Positions 6,963 to 32,594 of a DNA stretch of 34,019 nucleotides are shown piece after piece. The stretch covers positions 1 to 34,019 of the forward strand of contig JACMPC010000253.1 of the NCBI GenBank assembly GCA_014377705.1, written 5' to 3'. The notes below the pieces were generated by a model. The model worked only from the letters and a program-made list of their open reading frames with translations, was not told where the DNA came from and did no database searches. Source of the DNA: Dermatophilaceae bacterium. Its GTDB lineage: Bacteria; Actinomycetota; Actinomycetes; Actinomycetales; Dermatophilaceae. The translations under genes and the position numbers were made by a program. Every line of letters starts with the position of its first letter. The first letter of the stretch is position 1.

Positions 6963-8160
6963 TCAGTACGCGCCACTCTGCTCGCCTCCATCGATTGGGA
7001 CGAACTTCCGCAGATACTTGTTCTCCTTTTTCAGCTTGATCATCTTGAGCTCACGTCCGACGGTCAGTCGGTGGAACTGCTCCAGCTCGGCCAGCCGAGT
7101 CAGCGCGGCGGTTTGCTGGCGGGCAACCTCCAGATGTGCCTGGTTCTGGATGGTCACGTCCCGGGCCGCGGCGAACACCCCCAACACCTTCCCTCCCCCG
7201 TCGCGGTACGCCGACGCGCTGTACAACACCTCGGTCAGCGTCCCGTCCCGGTGGCGCATCGTGAGCGGGTAGTCCACCGCCATGCCCTCCTCGAAGACCA
7301 GCTGGTAGATCGCGTTGGCCTTCTCCGGCTCGGTGAAACATTGCGAGAACGCCGTCCCGATCAGCTCCATCCGGGGTACGCCGCTGGCCTTGACCGCGGC
7401 CTCGTTGGCGTCGGGTGATCAAACCCTCCGCGCTGATCGCGACCAGCGCGTCCAGACTCGACTCGATCATCGAGCGGGCCGACTCGAAGGCTGCTTTCAC
7501 CGGTGACATGACCGGGAACACCGTCTCGTCCTTTCGGACACGCAGGGTCTCGAAGGGCTCAACATCCAAGCCGGCCTTGATCCTGGCCAGGATGGCGCTG
7601 ATCTCACCGGTTCGGCCCCCGGGGCTGAGCCGGTCGATGGACGTGCCGTCCATCTCTTCTCTGGAGTACCCGTTCATCCTCTCGACGGCCGGGTTCCAGC
7701 TCGTGACCATGCCGTCGAGCGTCTTGGCGATGATGGCGTCGTTCGAGTTCTCGATGATCGCAGCCAGGAGCTTGGAGTTCTCGATCGCCTCATTGTGTCT
7801 GTTCACCTCGCGCTGGGCCGTGAGCACCAACAGGATGTCCCCGGTGTCGAGATGCGACAAGCTGATGTTGACCGGGAGCTCGGCTCCGTCTTTTAGCCTT
7901 CCGCTCAGCTGCAGATCGAGTCCCCTGGACCGGCTCCGGGGATCTGCGAAGTAGTCCTCCCGGTGCTCGGAGTAGGCCTCCCAGAGATACTCAGGCACCA
8001 GCATCTGAATGGGCTGGCCCACCATGTCGTCGCGGTCAAAGCGGAACAACGTCTCCGTCTGATGATTGACAAACACGATGACACCCGTCTGGTCCATCCC
8101 CACCAACGCGTCCGGCACCGCCTCCAGCAGACCTTCGAACTTCCTCGTCTTCGAGGCCAT
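6963..8160 (-). pseudogene. PAS-repeat sensory protein with a frameshift
   Basis: About 399 codons encode PAS domains followed by a coiled coil and no kinase. PAS1 covers about residues 5-115 (LLEAVPDALVGMDQTGVIVF). PAS2 covers about 130-225 and appears to lack its last strands, since FPV runs straight into MSPVKAAFESARSMIESSLD. PAS3 covers about 230-345. A basic coiled-coil tail ends KKENKYLRKFVPIDGG. The frame is lost in PAS3 after ISAEGLIT: removing one base from the GGG run at 7413-7415 restores DANEAAVKASG and joins the two halves. The gene sits between the GGDEF-EAL gene and a response regulator. Without a kinase domain it probably senses a ligand and contacts partners. A sequencing error could also explain the single shift. 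Confidence 0.8.
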
Positions 8161-8339
8161 CTATTCCCCTTTAGGCTGCATCAGTGAGCGCTGAACTTAC
8201 GGCAAGGAGAGCGAGTTTCAACCTTACGTCGGGCAGAGGCCCCCCAACCGGGATCACCCAAAACCGGGCAGATCGACCGTGCCGGGTGCTGGACGCCTCA
8301 GCATCCCGTCCGCAGCCGACCAGGGCCAGGGGAGAAGGG

Positions 8340-10562
8340 TCATTCAAGAGCAGTGTCCCCCGGTGGCGCCGCTGGCTGGTCGGTTGCTGCCATCAGGCTG
8401 GAACGCCCGAGCAATAGCGGGTCGAGGGCGGGCACTGCCAGCGGTGGCCGGAACAAGTAGCCCTGCACCTGGTCACATTGGTGGCTTTGCAGGTACGCCA
8501 GCTGCGGCTGTGTCTCCACGCCCACGGCGATCACCTCCAGGTCGAGGCTGCGGCCCATCCGGATGATCGCCGCGGTGGTGGCGGCAGCGTCCGAGCTGCG
8601 GGTGACGTCGCGGATGAAGCGGCGGTCGATCTTCAGCGTGTCGACCGGGAACCGGCGCAGGTACGCGAGGCTGGAGTGGCCCGTCCCGAAGTCGTCGATG
8701 GAGATCTGCACGCCTGCGGACCGCAGGCTCCGCAAGGTGGCGATCGTGTGGTCGGCGCTCGTCATCAGCAGGTTCTCGGTCAGCTCGAGCTCGAGCAGCC
8801 GGGCCGGGATCTCATAGATGTCCAGCGCGAGCAGGACGTCGTTCTCCAGGTCGCCCCTGACGAGCTGCCGCTGCGAGACGTTGACCGACACCGGAACCGG
8901 GTCGATCCCGCGACGGCGCCAGTCCCTGATCTGTTCGCACGCCGTCACGATGACCCAACGGCCGACATCGACGATGAGGCCCGACTCCTCCAGTGAGTAG
9001 ATGAACTCACTGGGCGGGACTATGCCGAACCCTGGCCGCTCCCAGCGCACCAACGCCTCCAGGCCCACGACATGCCCGCCTTCGAGCTCCACCTTGGGCT
9101 GGTAGTGCAGGACGAACTCCCCGTTCTTGAGCGCATGCCTGAGCGCCGTCTCGAGCTCCAGCCGGCGCCATACCTCGGTATTCATCGCGTTCGTGAAGAA
9201 CTGGAAGCCGTCGCGTCCGGACTGTTTGGCCTGGTACATGGCCATATCCGCGTACCTGAGCAGGGTCTCGGTGTCGGTTGCGTCTTCGGGATGCAGCGTG
9301 ATGCCGATGCTGGCGGTCACTGTCACGTTGTGGCCGTCCAGGCGGAAGGGCCTCGCCAATGCTGTCTGGATCTGCCTGGCCACGACCGAGGGATCGCCTC
9401 GCCCCTGCGGCATGGTCAGGATCAGAGCGAACTCATCACCCCCGAGCCGCCCAACGGTATCGCGGTCGTCCACGCACTCGACCAGCCGGTCGCTCACCTG
9501 GATCAACAGCTCGTCACCGACCGCGTGGCTGTGGCTGTCGTTGACGTTCTTGAAGTAGTCGAGGTCCACATGCAGGACCGCGACCGTCTCCCCGGAGGCC
9601 GAGGCGTACGCCAGCGTCCGGTTCAGGGTTTCGCAGAACAGCGTGCGGTTCGCCAGTCCGGTGAGCGTGTCGAAGTGAGCCATATCCTCCAGACGGCTCT
9701 GAACCCTGAGTCGTCCAGTGATGTCGTGCATGACGGTCACGATGATCCAGTCGGCTCCCGCACGCTGAGCCTGCCGGTGCACCTCGACCGGGAAGGTGGA
9801 CCCGTCCTTGCGCTGTGCGGTCTCTATGGAGGCAGTCCGGCCCCGGCCGGCAATGATCGCGTCGTACAGCGCCGCCAGCTGGTCGCGCGAGCTCGTGGAC
9901 AGCTCGGTTGGTCCGAGCTCTAGCAGCTCGTCCCGCGAGTAGCCCAGCATCTGGGACGTGGGTGCGTTGAGCGCGACGAACCGCATGGTGGTGCGGTTCA
10001 CGATCACGATCGAGTCGTGGGTGGCATCCATCGCCATCCGGAAGCGTTTCAGGTCCACCGTCCGTGCCTGTAGCTCTGCGGTCCGTGCCTGCGCCTGGGC
10101 TTCGAGGTTCACCTGGTGCTTCTCGAGGAGGTCGCTGAGCCGCTTCAGCCGCAGGAGGTTGCGTACCCGCAGCCAGAGCTCGGCCCGGTCGACGGGTTTG
10201 GACAGGAAGTCCTCGGCCCCCGCGTCCAGTGCCGCCAGGCGTGCTTCGCGGTCGGTCTGGGCCGTGACCATGATGATCGGAATCTTGCTGGTGGCGGGAT
10301 CTGACTTAACGGCCCGCGCGACCTGCCGACCGTCCAGCCCGGGCATCATGACGTCAAGAAGGATCAGGTCCGGCGGGTCGTCGGCTATGGCGACCAGGGC
10401 ATGCTCGCCACTGTCCGCAGTGCTCGTGACATAACCTTCATGCCCGAGCAGGGCCTCCAGGAGTCGACGATTCTGGCTCTCGTCATCGACGATGAGGATG
10501 TTGGCCGGCGCGGACACGTCGGGCGCTGACACGTCGGGCAGTGAGACGTCGGGAGCTGTCAT
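8340..10562 (-). CDS. receiver-PAS-GGDEF-EAL c-di-GMP signalling protein
   Basis: 740 residues. An N-terminal receiver (about 21-140) has phosphoacceptor Asp70 and Lys122. A coiled-coil linker leads to a PAS domain (about 170-285). The GGDEF domain has an intact GGDEF motif at 374-378 and a metal-binding Asp in HVDLDYF, but DDRD replaces the RxxD inhibitory site. The EAL domain (about 465-715) keeps Glu502, Asn561, Glu593, Asp623/624, Lys644, Glu683 and Gln700. Residue 680, which aligns by spacing with the RocR catalytic base Glu352, is Val (codon GTG at 8523-8525). It may therefore make c-di-GMP but degrade it poorly. The first 20 residues are three PDVS-containing pentapeptide repeats. The gene begins 10 bases after a response regulator. 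Confidence 0.93.
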   Translation of the reverse strand: MTAPDVSLPDVSAPDVSAPANILIVDDESQNRRLLEALLGHEGYVTSTADSGEHALVAIADDPPDLILLDVMMPGLDGRQVARAVKSDPATSKIPIIMVTAQTDREARLAALDAGAEDFLSKPVDRAELWLRVRNLLRLKRLSDLLEKHQVNLEAQAQARTAELQARTVDLKRFRMAMDATHDSIVIVNRTTMRFVALNAPTSQMLGYSRDELLELGPTELSTSSRDQLAALYDAIIAGRGRTASIETAQRKDGSTFPVEVHRQAQRAGADWIIVTVMHDITGRLRVQSRLEDMAHFDTLTGLANRTLFCETLNRTLAYASASGETVAVLHVDLDYFKNVNDSHSHAVGDELLIQVSDRLVECVDDRDTVGRLGGDEFALILTMPQGRGDPSVVARQIQTALARPFRLDGHNVTVTASIGITLHPEDATDTETLLRYADMAMYQAKQSGRDGFQFFTNAMNTEVWRRLELETALRHALKNGEFVLHYQPKVELEGGHVVGLEALVRWERPGFGIVPPSEFIYSLEESGLIVDVGRWVIVTACEQIRDWRRRGIDPVPVSVNVSQRQLVRGDLENDVLLALDIYEIPARLLELELTENLLMTSADHTIATLRSLRSAGVQISIDDFGTGHSSLAYLRRFPVDTLKIDRRFIRDVTRSSDAAATTAAIIRMGRSLDLEVIAVGVETQPQLAYLQSHQCDQVQGYLFRPPLAVPALDPLLLGRSSLMAATDQPAAPPGDTALE
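10512..10556 (-). repeat. three 15-bp tandem repeats at the gene start
   Basis: Directly after the first two codons of the receiver-PAS-GGDEF-EAL gene, three diverged 15-bp units encode APDVS, LPDVS, APDVS and run into the receiver domain. The units share the core CCCGACGT and the codon phase, so they expand the protein by five residues each. Confidence 0.9.
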
Positions 10563-10572
10563 GTCGGGGGTG

Positions 10573-10986
10573 TCATTCTGCCGGCAGACTCAAAGGCACC
10601 GTCTGGTTCGCGGGTGGTGGTGACACCTGCAGAAGGTGGTCCATCACGGAGTACAGCTCTTTGTACCGCAACGGTTTGACGATGTAGGCGTCACAGCCGG
10701 CGGTCTGGCTCCGCTCCTTGTCGGCCTTCATCGCCAGCGCGCTCAGGGCGATGATCGGGATGGCCTCGGTGGCCGGGTCCTGCTTCAGGATGGCGGTCGC
10801 AGCCAGGCCGTCCATGCCCGGCAGCTGGATGTCCATCAGGATCAGGTCCGGCTGCTCGTCCAGAGCCAGTCTCAACCCCGTTTCGGCGTCCACGGCGGGC
10901 AGCACGATGTGGCCGGCACTGTGCAGGAGCAGCGATGTCAGCTTCATGTTCGCGGGGTTGTCCTCGACGACTAGCACCTTGGCCAT
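10573..10986 (-). CDS. single-domain response regulator (DivK-like)
   Basis: 137 residues, a single receiver domain with acidic residues Glu8/Asp9, phosphoacceptor Asp52 in ILMDIQLPGMDG, Ser/Thr position in IIALSALAM and Lys in AYIVKPLRY (about 103). The MDIQLPGMDG signature and KAD region are typical of DivK/CheY-like partners of hybrid kinases. A Pro-rich tail of about 20 residues follows the fold. It lies 12 bases after the hybrid kinase gene and 10 bases before the GGDEF-EAL gene. It is therefore likely the diffusible phosphocarrier between them (inference from gene order). Confidence 0.92.
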   Translation of the reverse strand: MAKVLVVEDNPANMKLTSLLLHSAGHIVLPAVDAETGLRLALDEQPDLILMDIQLPGMDGLAATAILKQDPATEAIPIIALSALAMKADKERSQTAGCDAYIVKPLRYKELYSVMDHLLQVSPPPANQTVPLSLPAE

Positions 10987-10998
10987 CTGATGCTCCTC

Positions 10999-13530
10999 CT
11001 AGCGTCGGGGCAGGGCACGCCGGACCTCGGCCATGAAGTCAGTCGCGTTGAGGCCGGCCTTCCTGATGATGCGGACGGCGTGGCTCGGATCGGTGTTGAG
11101 GGCCTTGCGGTCAAGTGCCGTGATATCTCTGGCGGTGACGACCAGGATGGGGATGCCCGACGTGCCGGGGTCGGACTTCAGCGCACGGACGACATCGAAC
11201 CCGCTCACCTCGGGCATCATCAGGTCGAGCAGGATGAGATCGGGCTGCACCTGATGAGTCAGGGCGACGGCCTCGAGCCCGCTGTAGGCCCGGACCACCA
11301 CATAGTCCGGCAGGGTCAGGTACGCGGCGATCAGCTCGACCGCCCTGGGGTCGTCGTCGACGACCAGAACGGTACGCGTCCGGTCCTGCTCGTCGTGGAA
11401 GCCCACGTTGGTCAGTGCCTGCTTCAGCGCGGCGTGGCTGATCGGCTTCTGCAGGACCGCGACGGCGCCTTCGGCCAGGGCCAGGGGTCCATCGGAAGCC
11501 CCGGAGACGACGACGACCGGCACCGTGCCCAGGTTGTCGTGCTCACGGATGGTCGCCAGGAACTGCCATCCGCTGATCCCGGGCAGCTCGGTATCCAGGG
11601 TGATCAGGTCGAGGCTCTGCCGGGGCGCCATCCGCAGCGCTTCCTCGGCGCTGGAGGCGCGCAGGACGGCAAAGCCCTCAGCCGCGAGAAGTTTGCACAC
11701 CACCGCCGCGGAGTCGTCGTCATCTTCCACCACGAGTGCGACACGATCCACGATCCTGGCGGGGACCACCGTCACCGCCGGCACGTCTGCGCGCTCGGCC
11801 GGGGCAGGCTGGGGGTATGCCTGCAGCGGGATCCAGGCCGCGAAGCACGCGCCCTCGCCCTCCTTGCTGGCCACCGCCACGGTCCCACCGAGCAGCTCGG
11901 TCATCTGCTTGACCATCGCGAGGCCCAGCCCGGTGCCCTCGAACTTGCGTGCCAGGCTGCTGTCGATCTGGGAGAAGGACTGGAACAGCTTCGCCATGTT
12001 CTCCTCGGAGATACCGATGCCGGCATCGGTCACGCAGATCTCGAGGAACCCGGTGAACTCGTTCTCGGCCAGCTCGAACGTGCGGACCGGCCAGGTGCCG
12101 TCCAGCGTGCTGACGGCGCTCCGGGGAACCTGCCGGGCGCGAAGGGACACCAGACCCCCCTGGCTGCTGAACTTCACCGCATTGGAGAGCAGGTTGTAGA
12201 CGATCTGCTTGGTCTTGCGCACGTCCAGCTGGGCTACGCCAACATGATCATCCAGCTCGAGGTCAAGACCGATGCTGCGCGCCAGCGCCTTCTCCCGCAC
12301 GATGGACAAGGCGTTGGACAACAGCTGCCTCGCGTCCACCACCTCCATCTCGAGCTCCATCATCCCGGCTTCGACCTTCGAGAGGTCCAGGATGTCGTTG
12401 ATCAGCAAGAGCAGATGCTGACCGCTGGTGAAGATATCCCCGATGTACTCCTGCTGCTTTTCGGTCAGCTCGCCCAGGAGGCCGTCCTTCAGCGCCTCAG
12501 AGAATCCGATCACCGAGTTGAGGGGGGTGCGGAGCTCGTGCGACATCGTGGCCAGGAACTCCGACTTCATCCGGCTTGCATGCTCCAGCTCGACGTTCTT
12601 CTGCTGCAGGGTGCGTTCTGAGCGCCGGCGGTCGGTCGCGTCGCGGGCAGCCACGAACACGCCCTGCAGGTCGTGGTGTCGATCGTGGATGGTCGAGGCG
12701 TTGTAGGACACAAACGTCTCACGCCCGCCTCGGGCACGGACGGTCAGCTCGTAGTCGGTCACCTGGTGCTCGGCCAGCACCCGCGCGATGCCCGCGTCAG
12801 CCCGGGCGGGGTCGGTGAAGAAGTCTCTGAACGGGACACCGATCAGCTCAGCGCGAGTACGTCCGGTCAGGGTCATCATCTGCTGGTTGACGTCGGTGAT
12901 GGTGCCCTCGGGATCGGTGGTCATCAGGGCATCGACGTTCGACTCAATCAGGGAACGCGTGTAGAACTGCTGGTCCCGCAGCTGCTGGTCCAGCAGCGCC
13001 TGGGCTGCCTCGACCTCTTTGCGGGCGGTGTTGTCGGTTCCGATCAGCAGGTAGCCGATGATGTCGTCCTGTACGTCGCGCAGCGCGGTCACCGAGACGA
13101 TGGCCGGGAAGCGGCTGCCGTCCTTGCGGACGTAGGTCAGCTCGTAGCTGTCCTCGATGCCTCGTTTGGCCTTGAAGACGAGGGCCTCGAAGCCGGGCGC
13201 GATCGGGGTGTCCAGCTCGGCGCTGAGCTCGGCCGCGCGCTTGATGAGCTCTTGGGGGTCGGAGATGTCCGCGGGGGTGATCCGGTCGACCACGTCGACC
13301 GCGTCGTATCCGAGCATCGCCTCGGCGCCGACGTTGAAGATCTGGATGACGCCCCGCTCGTCGGTGGCCATCTGCCAGAAGTATGCGCTGTTGAAGATGG
13401 CGTCCGACAGGGCGCTACGGGCCTTGATCTGTTGAAACCTGCGCTCCGCGGTGAGGGTGGCGGTGACGGTGACGGTGACGGGTGCACTGTCGGCCATGCC
13501 GGGGGGAGTGCTGTCCAGGGAACTGGTCAT
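10999..13530 (-). CDS. hybrid sensor histidine kinase (PAS-PAS-HisKA-HATPase-REC-REC)
   Basis: 843 residues from the ATG at 13530. There are two PAS domains (about 45-160 and 175-290), then the HisKA domain with phosphoacceptor His in FLATMSHELRTPLNSVIGF. The HATPase domain has an N box (IVYNLLSNAVKFS), G1 (VTDAGIGIS) and G2 (FEGTGLGLAMV). Two receivers follow: the first has Asp in ITLDTELPG and Lys in LQKPIS, the second Asp in LLDLMMPEVSG and Lys in RKAGL. No transmembrane helix is seen, so the sensor is cytoplasmic. An in-frame GTG at 13710 would add 60 disordered residues; 13530 is preferred because GGGAG precedes it. It heads the signalling block and probably phosphorylates the adjacent response regulators. 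Confidence 0.93.
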   Translation of the reverse strand: MTSSLDSTPPGMADSAPVTVTVTATLTAERRFQQIKARSALSDAIFNSAYFWQMATDERGVIQIFNVGAEAMLGYDAVDVVDRITPADISDPQELIKRAAELSAELDTPIAPGFEALVFKAKRGIEDSYELTYVRKDGSRFPAIVSVTALRDVQDDIIGYLLIGTDNTARKEVEAAQALLDQQLRDQQFYTRSLIESNVDALMTTDPEGTITDVNQQMMTLTGRTRAELIGVPFRDFFTDPARADAGIARVLAEHQVTDYELTVRARGGRETFVSYNASTIHDRHHDLQGVFVAARDATDRRRSERTLQQKNVELEHASRMKSEFLATMSHELRTPLNSVIGFSEALKDGLLGELTEKQQEYIGDIFTSGQHLLLLINDILDLSKVEAGMMELEMEVVDARQLLSNALSIVREKALARSIGLDLELDDHVGVAQLDVRKTKQIVYNLLSNAVKFSSQGGLVSLRARQVPRSAVSTLDGTWPVRTFELAENEFTGFLEICVTDAGIGISEENMAKLFQSFSQIDSSLARKFEGTGLGLAMVKQMTELLGGTVAVASKEGEGACFAAWIPLQAYPQPAPAERADVPAVTVVPARIVDRVALVVEDDDDSAAVVCKLLAAEGFAVLRASSAEEALRMAPRQSLDLITLDTELPGISGWQFLATIREHDNLGTVPVVVVSGASDGPLALAEGAVAVLQKPISHAALKQALTNVGFHDEQDRTRTVLVVDDDPRAVELIAAYLTLPDYVVVRAYSGLEAVALTHQVQPDLILLDLMMPEVSGFDVVRALKSDPGTSGIPILVVTARDITALDRKALNTDPSHAVRIIRKAGLNATDFMAEVRRALPRR
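13462..13479 (-). repeat. GTCACC hexamer repeated three times
   Basis: GGTGAC on the plus strand is repeated three times, giving the VTVTVT run near residue 18 of the hybrid kinase. It lies upstream of the first PAS domain, in a segment with no conserved fold. Confidence 0.85.
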
Positions 13531-13912
13531 GCCGGTCGCTCCCGGCGCATGGCGCAGGTTGAGCGAGCCGGTCTGCTGGTTCGTGATTCGGTGTCGAGCA
13601 CGTGCGGAACCTGTCTGTCTGGTGGCGTCTCGGCGGACAGTGGCTCTGACTTCTCCAGACTGCTCATGCGCCGTACTGCTGGCACCCGGTTCTGAGTACC
13701 AGCGGGCCACGATAGCCTAGCCGCGGTAGCCTCCGTTGTCAGTGGCATGGGGGAGCAGCGCCTTCGGTGCAACAGGCAATAGCGGGGTCCCGGATGTTAT
13801 CATCTAGCCTGCTGCTTCCCCGTGGACCCGGTGGCGTCAGCGAAGTGACGCGCCGCACACGCACCCCGGTGGCTCGTACTTGGCAGTGCGGAACCACCGA
13901 ATTGAGTCTGAG
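13531..13912. other. divergent control region of the signalling locus
   Basis: 382 bases between the minus-strand hybrid kinase and the plus-strand STAS/ATPase fusion. It contains a good minus-strand promoter candidate (13714-13742) and possible N-terminal extensions of both genes (GTG 13710 on minus, TTG 13880 on plus) that are not conserved-looking. No other gene is recognised. Confidence 0.5.
13714..13742 (-). promoter_or_regulatory. putative promoter of the signalling operon
   Basis: Read on the minus strand, CTGACA (13742-13737) and TAGGCT (13719-13714) are separated by exactly 17 bases, a good vegetative-sigma match. Transcription would start near 13707, leaving a leader of about 175 bases before the preferred ATG at 13530. 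Confidence 0.45.
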
Positions 13913-18218: not shown

Positions 18219-18936
18219 TCAGGCGATGGCGACCCAGCCGGCGGCGCTGGTCTGGAAGGCGACGGGGCCCAGCTGTCCGATGCCGGCAGGGATCCGGCCA
18301 AGCAGCTGAGCGCCGGTGACCGACGGCAGGTCCTGCAGGTTGGTTCGCATCGCCAGGTTCGGATCATCGGGCCAGGACCCGATGACGAAGCCGAGACAGT
18401 CCAGCCCCCGGCTCCGCAGGGCTTCGGCGGTCAGGGCGCTGTGGTTCAGGGTTCCCAGGTCGGCGGCCGCGACCACGACGTAGCCCACTCTGGCGCCGAC
18501 GTCGGTGAGCTCCCTGCCCAGGTCGGCAACCGTGGCCGCTTCAGCATCGATGCGTGAGCAGCCCGCCTGCTCCCTCGACGAGGACGAGGTCGACGTCGTC
18601 GCGACCTGAGATCTCGGCCAGCCGCGCGGGGTGTTCCGCCACGGGGGGGTAGCGCCACGCCCGCCAGGCGCCCGGCTGCATCGGGTGCGAGCGGGTCGGC
18701 AGCCGGACGAACTCATGGTTCTCGACCTCACCCGCCAACCGGCATATGTCGTGCAGGTCCCCGGGCTCACCCGGCAGCAGCCCGGTCTGGGTGGGCTTGA
18801 CGACCACCAGTCGTAAGCCCTGGGCGCGAAGCCCCACGACGATCGCGGCCGGGGTCACCGTCTTGCCGATCCCGATCCCGATCCCGGACCCGGTTCCGGT
18901 GCCGGTAACGATGATGATCGGAGCGAGCTGGCTCAT
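18219..18936 (-). pseudogene. bioD: dethiobiotin synthetase, frameshifted
   Basis: About 239 codons are recognisable as BioD, which closes the ureido ring of diaminopelargonate using CO2 and ATP. Two faults are visible. The P-loop VTGTGTGxGKT is enlarged by about six residues (GSGIGIGIGKT), produced by the hexamer run at 18868-18885. The frame is lost at about 18551, after LVLVEGAGGLLT; in another frame the family sequence continues as IDAEAATVADLGRELTD and reaches a plausible end (QTSAAGWVAIA). The ATG overlaps the stop of the bioF remnant by four bases (ATGA). The expanded P-loop still formally fits G-x5-GKT, but the frameshift should abolish the product unless bypassed. Original function is clear; present function is unlikely. 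Confidence 0.88.
18868..18885. repeat. GATCCC hexamer repeated three times inside the bioD P-loop
   Basis: Three exact GATCCC units on the plus strand give Gly-Ile repeats in BioD on the minus strand, inserted within the nucleotide-binding loop just before GKT. Confidence 0.92.
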
Positions 18937-19787
18937 CGTCTGGTGACCTCTCTGAGCACCCCTGCGGCGTGGGCCATCTCGTCCGCAGTGTGGTGGGCAT
19001 GAGCGGTGATTCGCAGTCGCGAGATGCCGTCAGGGGTTGAACGCGGGCGGAAGCATCCGATCCGTATGCCGCGCTCCGGTCAGGCCGCGACCGCTGCCAC
19101 GGCCTCTCGCGGTCCGGGCATAGGGACGGAGAGCACGGCCCCGGTGGGCGGGCGGGCACCGCAGCTCTCAGCGAGGATGACGGCGTTGGCCCGGGACAGC
19201 CCAAGGCTTGCGGTGAGCCCCTGTCCGCGGTCGCCGCGCGATCTCGTCGAGCTTTAGGGGCGCAGCATCACCCAGAACGGAGTAGATGGACTCGACGACG
19301 ATCATCGCCCTCGGCTGGCTGCGGGCGCCAAGCATCCTCTCGACCTCGGTGGCGTCGCTGTGCCCGGCGACCGCGACCTGTGCCCCGGATAACCGGGCTG
19401 CGTCATTGAGCGAGGCATGGATGTGGGCGTCCGAGACGATCAGGATGTCGGCCCCACCCAGTGCGGTGACCGCACCGAGGTTGGCGTGATAGCCGGTGGA
19501 GAACACCAGCGCGCTGCTGGCCCCGAGCAGCTCAGCCAGGGCGTCCTTGAGCTGGTCGTGGACCGGCAAGATACCGCTGATCAGCCGCGACGCACCGGCG
19601 CCGCCGCCGTAGGCGCGGGCCGCCGTGGTCGCCCCCAGGATGACTTCGGCGTGGTCGGTGAGCCCGAGGTAGTCGTTGCCTGCCAGGTCAAGCAGAGTGT
19701 CGCCGTCACGGGTGGCCAGGCGTCGGTCCAGCCGGCGCGTTCGCGATCGGCCGCCCTGGTCGCGAGTTCCTCCAGGAACCAGCTCAC
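18933..19787 (-). pseudogene. bioF: 8-amino-7-oxononanoate synthase, multiply broken
   Basis: Remnant of the PLP enzyme that condenses pimeloyl thioester with alanine. The start GTG (19787) encodes SWFLEELATRAADRERAG. One base is then missing near 19731 and the next frame continues LDRRLATRDGDTLLDLAGND through VESIYSVLGDAAPLKLDEIA. At about 19225 roughly 100 residues are absent, including the PLP-binding lysine loop, and the frame changes to LTASLGLSRANAVILAE and GAVLSVPMPGP. A TGA follows at 19080-19082 inside what should read AERGIRIGCFRP. The C-terminus RLRITAHAHHTADEM is still recognisable up to the stop overlapping bioD. Both ends keep the original four-base overlaps, so decay occurred within the operon. 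It cannot encode an active enzyme. Confidence 0.92.
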
Positions 19788-20993
19788 CGTGCAAGCCTGC
19801 CGCGGGGCGTACTGCCATGGACCTCGGCGACGGAGCCGACCAGGGCTGAGGTGATGGCAGCGATGTCTTCGGTCGTGCTGACTTATGGCGGCATCGTGGA
19901 GACCAGATCGCGGAACGGCCGCACTCACACCCCGCGTTCGATGGCCGCGGCACCGATCGCCTCGACGTCTGCCGGGCCGGCCAGCGGGTTGCCCATGAAC
20001 GTGGGCCCGTGCATCAACCCGCCGGACGTTGAGCCCACCGAGCCGGCCAAGCCGCTCACCCCCTGCGCCACCTCCCGGGTGCACAGGGTCGCGGCCAGCG
20101 TGAGGTAGCCGCCGGTGATCGCCTTGCCCACCGTGAGGATGTCGGGCACGACGCCGCACCTGTCCGCACCCCACATCGTTCCGGTCCGCCCGAAGACGGT
20201 CGCAATCTCGTCGAGGATCAGCAGTGTCCCGTGCCCGCGCGCCAGAGCGGCAAGCACCTGCACGACATGCGGGCTGTAGATGTGCATCCCGCCGGCGCCC
20301 TGCAGCACCGGCTCGGCCACCACCGCTGCCACCTCGCTGGCATGAGCTGCAAAGAGAGCTCGCGTCTGCTGCTCCCAGGCGACCATCGCCGGATCGTCGG
20401 CCGGGACGTGGATCCCGGCCGCGGGACGAGGGGCAAAGATCTGCTCGGGAAGGACGCCGGTGAACAGCCAGTGCATGCCGCCGACCGGGTCGCAGACACT
20501 CATGGGGGCGAAGGGGTCGCCGTGGTAGCCCCCGCGAATGGTGAACATCTTCGTTCGCGGTCGACCGGCGTTGACATGGAACTGCCACGCCATCTTCAGG
20601 GCTACCTCCACCGAGACCGACCCCGAGTCGGCCAGGAAAACGTGCTGCAGTGGTGACTCGTCGTGACCGTCCAGCCGCGGCGCCAGCTCGATCAGCCTGC
20701 GAGCCAACGCGATAGGGTCAGGCCGCCGAACATGACATGGCTCATCCGCCTGAGCTGGTCGCTGGCGGCCCGGTCCAGCTCAGGCACTGCGTAGCCGTGC
20801 GGGCGCACCACCAGCACGACATCGCGTCGATGACGCTGCAGACCTGCCCGTTGCGGCGGCGCAGCCGAAGGCGGACACCGGACGCGGACCCCACGAGGTA
20901 GGGAGTCGAGGGTGCCAGCGCGGATGAGTACGGGTGCCAGACGTGTTCACGGTCGAAGGCGATCAGCTCGGCTTGGCGCCCGAGCCCGTTCAT
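19784..20993 (-). pseudogene. bioA: 7,8-diaminopelargonate aminotransferase, multiply broken
   Basis: Remnant of the SAM-dependent PLP aminotransferase of biotin synthesis. The N-terminus is ELIAFDREHVWHPYSSALAP in the first frame. One base is lost near 20800, after which HGYAVPELDRAASDQLRRM and MSHVMFGGLT read in a second frame. About ten bases are lost near 20715, and a third frame carries LARRLIELAP through the PLP lysine segment [13 protein letters not shown]. The C-terminus contains two in-frame nonsense codons: TGA at 19925-19927, where RGVWVRPFRD is expected, and TAA at 19883-19885, after DLVSTMPP. Coding similarity continues past both stops to a TGA overlapping the bioF GTG. The ATG overlaps the bioB stop. 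Confidence 0.92.
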
Positions 20994-21949
20994 CGGTGCA
21001 AGACGGGCTCCGTGGTCAGGCGCACTCCCAGCTTGTCGAGGAGCTGATGATCACGGTCCGGGCCCGCATTCGGTGTGGTGAGGAGCTTCTCGCCGAGGAA
21101 GATGCTGTTGGCACCGGCGTGAAGGCACAGCGTCTGGAGCTCGTCGCTCATCGACTCCCGGCCGGCGGAGAGTCGAACGACCGAGTGCGGCATCAGCAGC
21201 CGCCCGGTCGCGATGGTGCGGACGAGCTCGAGCCCGTCCAGTGGCTCCACCTCCTCCAGCGGGGTGCCGGGCACCTGCACGAGCAGGTTGATCGGCACGC
21301 TCTCCGGGTGCGGGTCCATCGTCGCCAGCTGACGCAGCAGACCGGCCCGGTCATCGCGGGACTCGCCCATTCCGACGATCCCGCCGCAGCACAGGCTCAC
21401 CCCCGCGGCTCGCACGTTGGCGAGGGTGGCCAGCCGGTCGTCATACGTGCGGGTGGTGATGACCTCGCCGTAGAACTCGGGCGAGGTGTCCAGGTTGTGG
21501 TTGTAGTAGTCCAGACCGGCGGTGGCCAGCGCGGCGGCCTGGGCGGAGGTCAGCATGCCGAGCGTCGCACACGTCTGCAGCTCGAGGGCGGCGACCTCGC
21601 GCACCGCCTCCGCCACCTTGTCGACCTGTTTGTCGGTGGGGGAGCGCCACGCGGCACCCATGCAGAACCGGGTGGCGCCAGCGGCTTTCGCGTCGTGGGC
21701 CGCGGCAATGATCTCTTCGGTGCTGAGCAGGCCTGCAGGCTCCAGGCCGGTGTGGTGCCGGGCTGACTGCGGGCAGTAGGCGCAGTCCTCCGAGCAGCCG
21801 CCGGTCTTGATCGACACCAGCGACGCCCCCTCGATCTCGTTGGGGTCGAACCGGTCGCTGTGAACGCGGTGCGCATCGGCGAGCAGGTCGTGGATCGGCC
21901 GGTCGAGGATCTCTCGAACCTCGGCGTTGGTCCAGTCATGGTGGATCAT
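20990..21949 (-). CDS. bioB: biotin synthase
   Basis: 319-residue radical SAM enzyme that inserts sulfur into dethiobiotin to give biotin. The 4Fe-4S/SAM cluster motif is Cys52, Cys56 and Cys59 (CSEDCAYC). The 2Fe-2S sulfur-donor cluster ligands are Cys96, Cys127, Cys187 or Cys188, and Arg259 (VVRLSAGRE), all in expected contexts ([20 protein letters not shown]). The frame is complete and uninterrupted. The ATG is preceded by GAGGAGA. It is the first gene of the bioBAFD operon and overlaps bioA by four bases. It is the only biotin gene here without damage. Activity would need a sulfur-cluster repair system and supplied dethiobiotin. Confidence 0.96.
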
Positions 21950-22013: not shown

Positions 22014-22057
22014 CCCGGAGACTCGTTCCACCGTTCGCACGAAGATAACAGCACGTG

Positions 22058-29978: not shown

Positions 29979-31919
29979 TCAGGCATTGGGTATTTCAGGG
30001 TGGGTCGGGCCACCGGCCAAGGCGTGCATCGTGCCGTCGAAGACGTGCCAGCAGGCCCGCCCGGAGGCCTTGGCCCGGAACAGCGCCGAGTCTGCGTCGC
30101 GCAGCAGGCCGTCGGGGGTCGAGGTCGACGTCGACACGGCGATGCCGATGGAGGCGGTCGGCACGACCCGGTGGCCCTGCACCTGAAGGTCAGCGGCGAT
30201 CGAGGCGGACACCCGTTCGGCGCAGTGCAGGACGTCCGGCTCGTCGCGCACGTCCTGGATGACGATGACGAACTCATCCCCGCCGAAGCGTCCGACCCGG
30301 TCCCCGGGCCGCAACGCCGCCGCGATCCGTTCCGCCACGGCGCTCAGCACCTGATCGCCGGCTGCGTGACCCAGGGAGTCGTTGACGACTTTGAAGTTGT
30401 CCAGGTCCAGGAACAGTGCCGCCACAGAATGGCCCTGACGCGTCGCGGCACGCAGATCGGCTTCGAGGATGTCCAAGACCCAGGCCCGGTTGTGCAAGCC
30501 GGTCAGCGGGTCGTGAAAAGCCCGGTAGGCCAGGGCTTCTTGGGCCTCGTGCTCCGCGCTGATGTCCTCGGCCTGAACCATGAGCTTGCTCGCCTGGCCA
30601 TCCTCGTCGCGAAGGAGAACAGCAACCCGACGCACCCAGACCGTGGTGCCGTCGGCCCGAATCAGACGCATCTTCGCGACGCCCGAGTCCCGTGTTCCGG
30701 ATAGCACGCGGGAGTGCTCCTTGGCCTCAGTCTCAGCATCGTCGGGGTGGACCACATCCTGAAGCCGGTGTGCCAGGAACCACGTCTCGTCGTGGCCGAG
30801 CAGCTCGCACAACGAGCTGTTCACGACCTGGAAGCGGCCCCCCAGGTCGGCCAGGGCGATGCCGATGGGCGCGGACACCATCATGGTGTGGACCAGGTCC
30901 TGCGCCGCGGTCGGGGTCCGGACGTTCTCGGCCGCCCGCGCTTGTTCAGCCGCCCGGCGGCGCGCGACGCGCCAGGTCAGCAGGGTGAATGCCAGCACTA
31001 GCAGCAGCGCGACACCGAGGGTGATGAACAGGCCGCGATGGAAGTTGCGGGCGGGAGTCAAGGCGACCGCGGAGGGCAACGCGGCCGTGACCGTCCAGCC
31101 GAGGCCGGTCACGGGCCCGGCCGCCTGGAACCTTCCAGCTGTGACGGCGCTGCTGTTTTGCCCAGCCAGCGCCTGCCTGGTCGTCGCGTCAACCGGCACC
31201 TGGATCGCCTGCCCACGCTCGTCGACCCTCGGGGTACCGGTGAGCGGTTGTCCTTGCTGATCGGTCACGGTGATGGTGACACCGTCATCGGCGCGCGCGC
31301 CCTGACTCACCGCGCGGACCGAGTCGAGCTGCCACAACACCGCGAGGTACCCGACACGTCGGGAGCCGTCGAAGACGGGGGTGGCGACCGAGACGACCAG
31401 CGGATGCCCCTTCGCAAGCGTCCTGTAGGCCTGCGACACGTATGGCCTGCCTGTTCCGGAGACACCCTTGAACCAGTCCCGGAACGCGAAGTTGCGCCCG
31501 ATCAGCTCGGGTTGCGCGGGATAGAGCGCGACAAGGCGACCCTGGAGATCGGTCATGAACACCGACGGCGCGCTCTTGCTGCGCGCCAACGTCGACAGCT
31601 GATCCTGCACGCCGCGCAGGATGGCGGGTGAGGCAGTGGGCGTGCGGAGGCTGTCGATCACCGGGGTGTTCGTCGCAGTGGTCACCACTGTGGTCTTGAA
31701 GTCGTTGGCCTGATGCACCAGTGCCCGCGCCGCCGCGTCACGATTTGAACGCAAGCGTGCCTGTGCGTCGCTTTGGACAGTTCGGCTCACTCCGCTTGCT
31801 GCGAACACTCCGACACCGCACAGCAACACGACCGCCAGCAGAAGCGCACCCGCCGGAGCGGCAGCCGGAAGCCGAACCCATGAGCCTGGCGAGTGGCCCA
31901 CACGCACGCCGCTCTGCAT
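29979..31919 (-). CDS. membrane diguanylate cyclase (Cache-PAS-GGDEF)
   Basis: 646 residues from the ATG at 31919, preceded by GGAG. Residues about 15-42 form the first membrane helix. An extracytoplasmic dCache-like sensor follows (about 43-285, including VFMTDLQGRLVALYPAQPEL and RPYVSQAY). A second membrane helix (LFITLGVALLLVLAFTLLTW) leads to a PAS domain (about 330-450). The GGDEF domain has FHDPLTGLHNRAW at its start, metal Asp in LFLDLDNFK, an intact GGDEF at 546-550 and the inhibitory RxxD site RPGD at 537-540. It should make c-di-GMP in response to an external ligand with product feedback. There is no EAL domain. A longer frame up to 32189 exists but is not protein-like. Confidence 0.92.
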   Translation of the reverse strand: MQSGVRVGHSPGSWVRLPAAAPAGALLLAVVLLCGVGVFAASGVSRTVQSDAQARLRSNRDAAARALVHQANDFKTTVVTTATNTPVIDSLRTPTASPAILRGVQDQLSTLARSKSAPSVFMTDLQGRLVALYPAQPELIGRNFAFRDWFKGVSGTGRPYVSQAYRTLAKGHPLVVSVATPVFDGSRRVGYLAVLWQLDSVRAVSQGARADDGVTITVTDQQGQPLTGTPRVDERGQAIQVPVDATTRQALAGQNSSAVTAGRFQAAGPVTGLGWTVTAALPSAVALTPARNFHRGLFITLGVALLLVLAFTLLTWRVARRRAAEQARAAENVRTPTAAQDLVHTMMVSAPIGIALADLGGRFQVVNSSLCELLGHDETWFLAHRLQDVVHPDDAETEAKEHSRVLSGTRDSGVAKMRLIRADGTTVWVRRVAVLLRDEDGQASKLMVQAEDISAEHEAQEALAYRAFHDPLTGLHNRAWVLDILEADLRAATRQGHSVAALFLDLDNFKVVNDSLGHAAGDQVLSAVAERIAAALRPGDRVGRFGGDEFVIVIQDVRDEPDVLHCAERVSASIAADLQVQGHRVVPTASIGIAVSTSTSTPDGLLRDADSALFRAKASGRACWHVFDGTMHALAGGPTHPEIPNA

Positions 31920-32594
31920 AGCCGCCACTCCAGGCCCACCTTCCATGTCGCGAGCAGATCCCCAGATCGGGTGGTGTCGCTGACCGACCGGAGGCCCGAG
32001 AGAACCAAGGACTGAACGGAATACCCAATGACGGCTCGCATTCCCGAATCCCGACCAAGGCCCCACCCATCTCGCCGTCTCCGCTTCCCACTCTATGACG
32101 CCCGTGGCCGACACCTGGGTAAAATACGCAAAGACGCGGTGCCCGCGCGTGGGTTGCCGACATCCGCAGCCGCCGCCGCGGCAAGGCATCCCAAACGACG
32201 ATCGCCCCGCCGAGCGGTGCCCTTGGTGGGACTGCTGCTGGCGATCCCGGCTCTGGGATGGACGGGCTTCCGAAGCTCGGAATACTGTTCATCCTCGGGG
32301 CATGAGCGAATTCAACTCTAGCGGTGTCAAGATGTTGTATTTCTCTTCCAAGATCGCCATCAATGTGGTATTACCGTGTGTCGATAGCCATTTCGACCTG
32401 AATGAGCAGGTGCCTCTGCTCCTCCTCTATGTGGTAACCGATGTGGTACCAGGGCTGGCTCAGATCAGGGGCGTAGATCTCAGGTCAGTGCCTCTCTCGA
32501 TTGTCCAGCGAGGTCCCAATAAATTTATGGGCGAGAACGGTGCGTGAAAGTGTTCGAGGTCCTGATGGCCATGGGCGCCCGCCGAAAGCCCCTC
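31920..32594. other. intergenic region, AT-richer in its upper half
   Basis: 675 bases between the sortase stop and the cyclase start, both on the minus strand. The part at 32290-32550 is visibly lower in G+C than the rest of the window and contains three direct copies of ATGTGGTA (32363, 32429, 32441) and a TGGTACCA palindrome (32444-32451). A TTGACA-like hexamer is found on the minus strand at 32330-32325 without a good -10 box. No convincing gene is seen. Confidence 0.5.

What the first reader, a model, noticed from the sequence alone, without database searches (positions are those of the whole stretch)
18219..21949. Biotin operon with intact bioB and decayed bioA, bioF and bioD
Four genes keep their original order and four-base overlaps. 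In 2.8 kb, bioA has two frame-disrupting losses and two nonsense codons. bioF has a frameshift, a loss of about 100 codons including the PLP lysine, and a nonsense codon. bioD has a frameshift and a P-loop expansion. bioB is perfectly intact. The pattern suggests relaxed selection on de novo synthesis while the dethiobiotin-to-biotin step is kept, i.e. a vitamer-scavenging strain.
Basis: partly seen in the sequence, partly recalled or inferred. Interest (0 to 1): 0.78.

Follow-up and report, generated by a model that had tools for sequence, protein, structure and literature searches.

The report
Biotin operon decaying except bioB
A bacterium's vitamin-B7 gene set is falling apart except for its last gene, which is still kept in working order, so the cell probably finishes biotin from a precursor taken up from other organisms; this is a known lifestyle, seen here in mid-decay.

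Summary
BioB (20990-21949, minus) is intact; bioA, bioF and bioD beside it carry 12 inactivating coding lesions. Two same-genus genomes lack them: G001 has intact bioAFD on another contig; G003 has bioB-A-F-D with bioF and bioD open and one bioA break at an N gap. The window's genome (97% complete) shows no second bioA, bioD or DNA copy; its best bioF-like gene is glycine C-acetyltransferase. BioY, an ECF-type ATPase, biotin ligase and four biotin-carboxylase hits are present. Changes on the window's branch: bioB 35 synonymous/2 nonsynonymous; bioA+F+D 72/63. So bioB stayed under purifying selection while its neighbours decayed. Best reading: a desthiobiotin auxotroph importing desthiobiotin or biotin, a documented lifestyle (PMC9561691: 20.3% of 1068 aquatic genomes have bioB without the full set). 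Corrections: two of the three 'original' four-base overlaps look deletion-made, and bioB is foreign: 40-43% identical to BioB of three family genomes but 66% to a database relative, the reverse of bioA/F/D. New member of a known kind; useful as a natural test of why bioB is kept.

The parts
20990..21949 (-). bioB, intact biotin synthase (319 aa); foreign relative to BioB of other family members
   Evidence: open frame; TIGR00433 387.8 bits; 1r30 E=2e-114 with the radical-SAM cysteine motif; tree and identities
22034..22054 (-). 21-base element upstream of bioB shared with G003 (probable promoter region, inferred)
   Evidence: identical in the 200 bases upstream of bioB in window and G003, not seen in those of G001
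19784..20993 (-). bioA pseudogene: -1, -10, +18, -165, two nonsense codons; junction losses of 62 bp (before it, against G003) and 44 bp (at its end, against G003)
   Evidence: alignment with G003 and G001; fragments in several frames; ends checked
18933..19787 (-). bioF pseudogene: -1, -3, -53, -210 (SKSLAAQGG stretch lost), one nonsense codon
   Evidence: fragments
18219..18936 (-). bioD pseudogene: +18 in the P-loop, then -1, +1, -2
   Evidence: two fragments of 28.2 and 27.3 bits against a cut-off of 83.3

Best explanation
The window comes from a bacterium, probably an actinobacterium (inferred), that has lost de novo biotin synthesis by decay of bioA, bioF and bioD but keeps bioB under selection. 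The cell most likely imports desthiobiotin and/or biotin through BioY with an ECF module, converts desthiobiotin to biotin with BioB, and loads it on biotin carboxylases with BirA. Shown: the lesions, their absence from two same-genus relatives, no other bioA or bioD found in the assembly, presence of BioY, BirA and carboxylases, and constraint on bioB. Inferred: that BioY or another carrier takes up desthiobiotin, that bioB is expressed, and that desthiobiotin supports growth.
For: Lesions not seen in G003 and G001. Window branch: bioB 35 S/2 N against 71.7 S/63.3 N for bioA+F+D (one-sided Fisher p=7e-7); the three genes on G003's branch have 58 S/14 N (p=7e-5 against the window's branch); by gene p=0.011 (bioA), 1e-4 (bioF), 0.45 (bioD). 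Rough model: neutral share of the branch 0.28 (0.15-0.44); about 26 (13-46) nonsynonymous changes expected in bioB if equally relaxed, 2 seen, P about 3e-4. No lesion in bioB against 12 in about 3.2 kb: P about 0.03. BioY, ECF-type ATPase near it, below its equivalog cut-off, BirA, 4 biotin-carboxylase hits. Precedents: bioB-retaining bacteria overcome biotin auxotrophy with desthiobiotin (PMC9561691, abstract and passages); dethiobiotin supports growth of C. glutamicum (PMC3398298, passages).
Against: The assembly is 96.93% complete in 278 contigs, so intact genes in the missing part cannot be excluded. bioD alone shows no significant relaxation against G003. Synonymous distances of bioB (G000-G003 0.58, G000-G001 0.45) do not follow those of bioA/F/D (0.33-0.41 and 0.49-0.54), so its history may include recombination. 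No transport, expression or growth data; pimeloyl genes were not sought.
Confidence: 0.82

Rival explanations
1. The decay is recent and bioB has by chance not been hit yet; the species is on its way to losing biotin synthesis completely.
For: By lesion count alone, none in bioB has P about 0.03. Same-genus G002 (79% complete) has no BioD match, no BioA over cut-off and only a 9.5e-4 BioB-query match, and has two BioY hits.
Against: 2 nonsynonymous against 35 synonymous changes in bioB on the branch where bioA+F+D have 63 against 72; P about 3e-4 for equal relaxation in a rough model.
Confidence: 0.08
2. The lesions are assembly or sequencing errors.
For: The assembly is in 278 contigs; raw reads are not held.
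Against: Losses of 10, 53, 165 and 210 bp, 18-bp insertions and three nonsense codons are not typical read errors; the nonsynonymous excess is spread over bioA and bioF; 17 of 20 other frames scanned in the window give Pfam matches, a weak control.
Confidence: 0.03
3. BioB is kept for a reaction other than making biotin from imported desthiobiotin.
For: PMC9561691 (passages) names an unknown BioB reaction as one of two explanations for retention.
Against: BioB equivalog match and close alignment to E. coli BioB; BirA, carboxylases and BioY present.
Confidence: 0.04
4. Intact bioA/F/D, or unrelated replacements, lie in the unassembled part or were not recognised, so the cell is a prototroph.
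For: 96.93% completeness; in G001 bioAFD lie apart from bioB.
Against: No bioA over cut-off, no other bioD, no second DNA copy; all three functions would have to be missed.
Confidence: 0.03

Closest known systems
Desthiobiotin auxotrophs (bioB kept), Wienhausen et al. 2022, PMC9561691
   Same: bioB kept, one or more of bioF/A/D missing; rescue by desthiobiotin shown there, predicted here
   Different: There genes are scored present or absent; here the lost genes remain as alignable pseudogenes beside bioB, so selection can be compared within one operon
Corynebacterium glutamicum (PMC3398298)
   Same: Biotin auxotroph with a BioY uptake system, supported by dethiobiotin
   Different: It keeps functional BioA, BioD and BioB and lacks BioF; here A, F and D are all broken
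Same-family genome G010 (unnamed)
   Same: BioB and BioY present, no BioD match and no BioA over cut-off
   Different: Its BioB is of the usual family type; bioF and remnants were not looked for

Membership tests
Biotin synthase BioB | Match to the BioB equivalog above cut-off | tested here: met
   TIGR00433 387.8 bits, cut-off 225
Biotin synthase BioB | Radical-SAM CxxxCxxC and the other conserved cysteines and arginine of E. coli BioB | tested here: met
   Aligned to 1r30; which residues bind the clusters is recalled
Desthiobiotin auxotroph (bioB kept) | bioB present and intact | tested here: met
Desthiobiotin auxotroph (bioB kept) | One or more of bioF, bioA, bioD absent or broken, no second copy | tested here: met
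   within a 96.93% complete assembly
Desthiobiotin auxotroph (bioB kept) | Import route for the vitamer | tested here: inconclusive
   BioY 125.1 bits, cut-off 25, with an ECF-type ATPase below its cut-off; desthiobiotin transport itself not tested
Desthiobiotin auxotroph (bioB kept) | Growth on desthiobiotin, none without biotin vitamers | not testable with these tools
   needs culture

The most novel reading that the evidence does not exclude
A foreign bioB of the Acidimicrobiia/Pseudomonadota type, placed in front of a native bioAFD set, has outlived the operon it joined: acquiring this BioB, in cells that have BioY, may itself have favoured desthiobiotin scavenging and the loss of bioA/F/D.
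Probability: 0.12. Interest if true: 0.55.

Novelty: new member of a known kind. Interest (0 to 1): 0.4.

Why it matters
Why many bacteria keep bioB after losing the rest of the pathway is left open in PMC9561691 (passages). Pseudogenes beside a still-constrained bioB give an internal neutral yardstick, so retention by selection can be told from accidental survival, and sister genomes with the upstream genes show the earlier state.

Tried and rejected
Second copies of the pathway: none found (one search gave only a 38-base weak second match); the best bioF-like gene, on C25, is glycine C-acetyltransferase by equivalog cut-off, and the one on C266 reaches no cut-off. G003 bioA as a second decayed copy: rejected, its break coincides with two Ns. 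Shared operator between bioB and bioY: only short shared words, nothing convincing. Plasmid collection: 193 records, all at 60-80% identity, not used. bioB with pseudogenes in the literature: three papers, listing only, none used; other biotin-transport papers and the yhfT/yhfS papers seen as listings only, except PMC3398298. Not done: search for pimeloyl genes (bioW, bioC, bioH, bioI), identification of the species.

Full report
Observation. The window is contig C138 of a 3.78-Mb genome (96.93% complete, 278 contigs), which has one match to the BATS domain of BioB. On the minus strand bioB is open from 21949 to 20990, over the BioB equivalog cut-off and aligned over residues 5-311 to E. coli BioB 1r30. 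Downstream lie remnants of bioA, bioF and bioD in several frames.

Relatives. BioB was searched in 58 genomes, the window's own included. Of the three other genomes of the genus, G003 (68% complete, 92% identity) and G001 (87% complete, 86%) have it; G002 (79% complete) has only a 9.5e-4 match. G001 has bioA, bioF and bioD open on contig C8, while its bioB is on C273. G003 has bioB-A-F-D together; bioF and bioD are open and bioA breaks once, at two Ns, which I read as an assembly gap. No bioF of the four genomes reaches the TIGR00858 cut-off (G001's has 347 of 426 bits), so that name rests on gene order and best family.

Lesions. Against both relatives the window has, in bioA, -1, -10, an 18-bp insertion and two nonsense codons, plus a 165-bp in-frame loss measured against G001 (G003 is gapped there); in bioF, -1, -3, -53, -210 and a nonsense codon; in bioD, an 18-bp insertion, -1, +1 and -2. 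Leaving out the -3 and the two 18-bp insertions, that is 12 coding lesions. Two further losses lie at junctions: 62 bp before bioA (against G003 only) and 44 bp at its end (against G003; 35 against G001). They produce the bioB/bioA and bioA/bioF overlaps. The second is absent in both relatives and so derived here; the first is most simply derived too, since G003 and G001 share a bioA start that the window lacks. The bioF/bioD overlap is shared by all three.

Selection. Codons at which two of the three genomes agree were polarised: 319 bioB codons, and 372, 271 and 219 of bioA, bioF and bioD after leaving out those within three columns of a gap or N. Window branch (S/N): bioB 35/2, bioA 33/25, bioF 21/24, bioD 17.7/14.3. 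G003 branch: 35/4, 22/4, 23/2, 13/8. One-sided Fisher tests of the window branch against the G003 branch: bioA 0.011, bioF 1e-4, bioD 0.45, the three together 7e-5, bioB 0.89. bioB against the three on the window branch: 7e-7. A rough model puts relaxation at 28% (15-44%) of the branch and expects about 26 (13-46) nonsynonymous changes in bioB if it had been equally relaxed. This is simple counting with one polarising genome. Pairwise synonymous distances of bioB do not follow those of its neighbours, which I cannot explain.

Genome context. No other bioA over cut-off (best other match 253.7 of 405 bits), no other bioD, no second copy of the DNA beyond a 38-base weak match. BioY lies on C236, followed by an acyl-CoA-ligase-like gene, a thiolase and an ECF-type ATPase; the next open frame looks like a membrane partner, by eye only. 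One BirA and four biotin-carboxylase C-domain hits point to a need for biotin. A 21-base element upstream of bioB is identical in the window and G003.

Origin of bioB. In a tree of 103 BioB rows (80 database loci, three of this genus, 20 from family and order genomes) the genus groups with Ca. Microthrix and an Acidimicrobiales genome (94/100, just under the tool's star) inside a clade that is otherwise of Pseudomonadota (77 rows; 97/96, starred) and one methanotrophic endosymbiont without a phylum label, apart from the two clades that hold the other 20. The bootstrap had not settled, and the 80 rows are the best matches of 585 confirmed candidates in a capped scan, chosen for likeness to this BioB. 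As a check, G001's proteins were compared with the bio clusters of three family genomes (G012, G004, G017) and with the 80 loci: bioA 56-67% in the family against 50% at best in the loci, bioF 57-59% against 35%, bioD 46-57% against 32% (best-scoring match in each case), but bioB 40-43% against 66%. The loci often do not include bioA, F or D, so those three figures are lower bounds for them. bioB is therefore probably a transferred gene beside native bioAFD; no trees of bioA, F or D were built.

Census. Of the 58 genomes, 24 match this BioB at E below 1e-30. BioD was sought in all 24: 21 pass the cut-off, G015 falls just short (80.9 of 83.3), G000 has fragments and G010 has none. G010 also has no BioA over cut-off and has BioY. 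So 2 of 24 have BioB without a full BioD.

Comparison. [quoted passage not shown] PMC3398298 (passages) reports dethiobiotin supporting C. glutamicum. The finding is a well-supported new case whose merit is that the decaying genes are still there to be compared.

Noticed in passing
L154:5647-9391 (G000:C236): BioY is followed by an acyl-CoA-ligase-like gene, a thiolase and an ECF-type ATPase, with a possible membrane partner after them; the role of the two lipid-type enzymes beside a biotin transporter is unclear.
   Followed up: partly
window 20990-21949: bioB synonymous distances do not follow bioA/F/D: G000-G003 0.58 against G000-G001 0.45; possible recombination.
   Followed up: no
G001:C273 and G001:C8: bioB and bioAFD are on separate contigs in G001 but joined in G003 and the window, so the arrangement may differ within the genus.
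   Followed up: partly
G010:C5: A 99% complete same-family genome with BioB and BioY but no BioD match and no BioA over cut-off: a possible second case.
   Followed up: partly
L085-L104: BioB of the other family and order genomes falls into two well separated clades, so BioB may have been exchanged or duplicated more than once in this group.
   Followed up: no
window 7051-13710 and 29979-32189: Several signalling genes: a PAS protein, a response regulator-GGDEF-EAL protein, a hybrid histidine kinase and a Cache-PAS-GGDEF protein.
   Followed up: no
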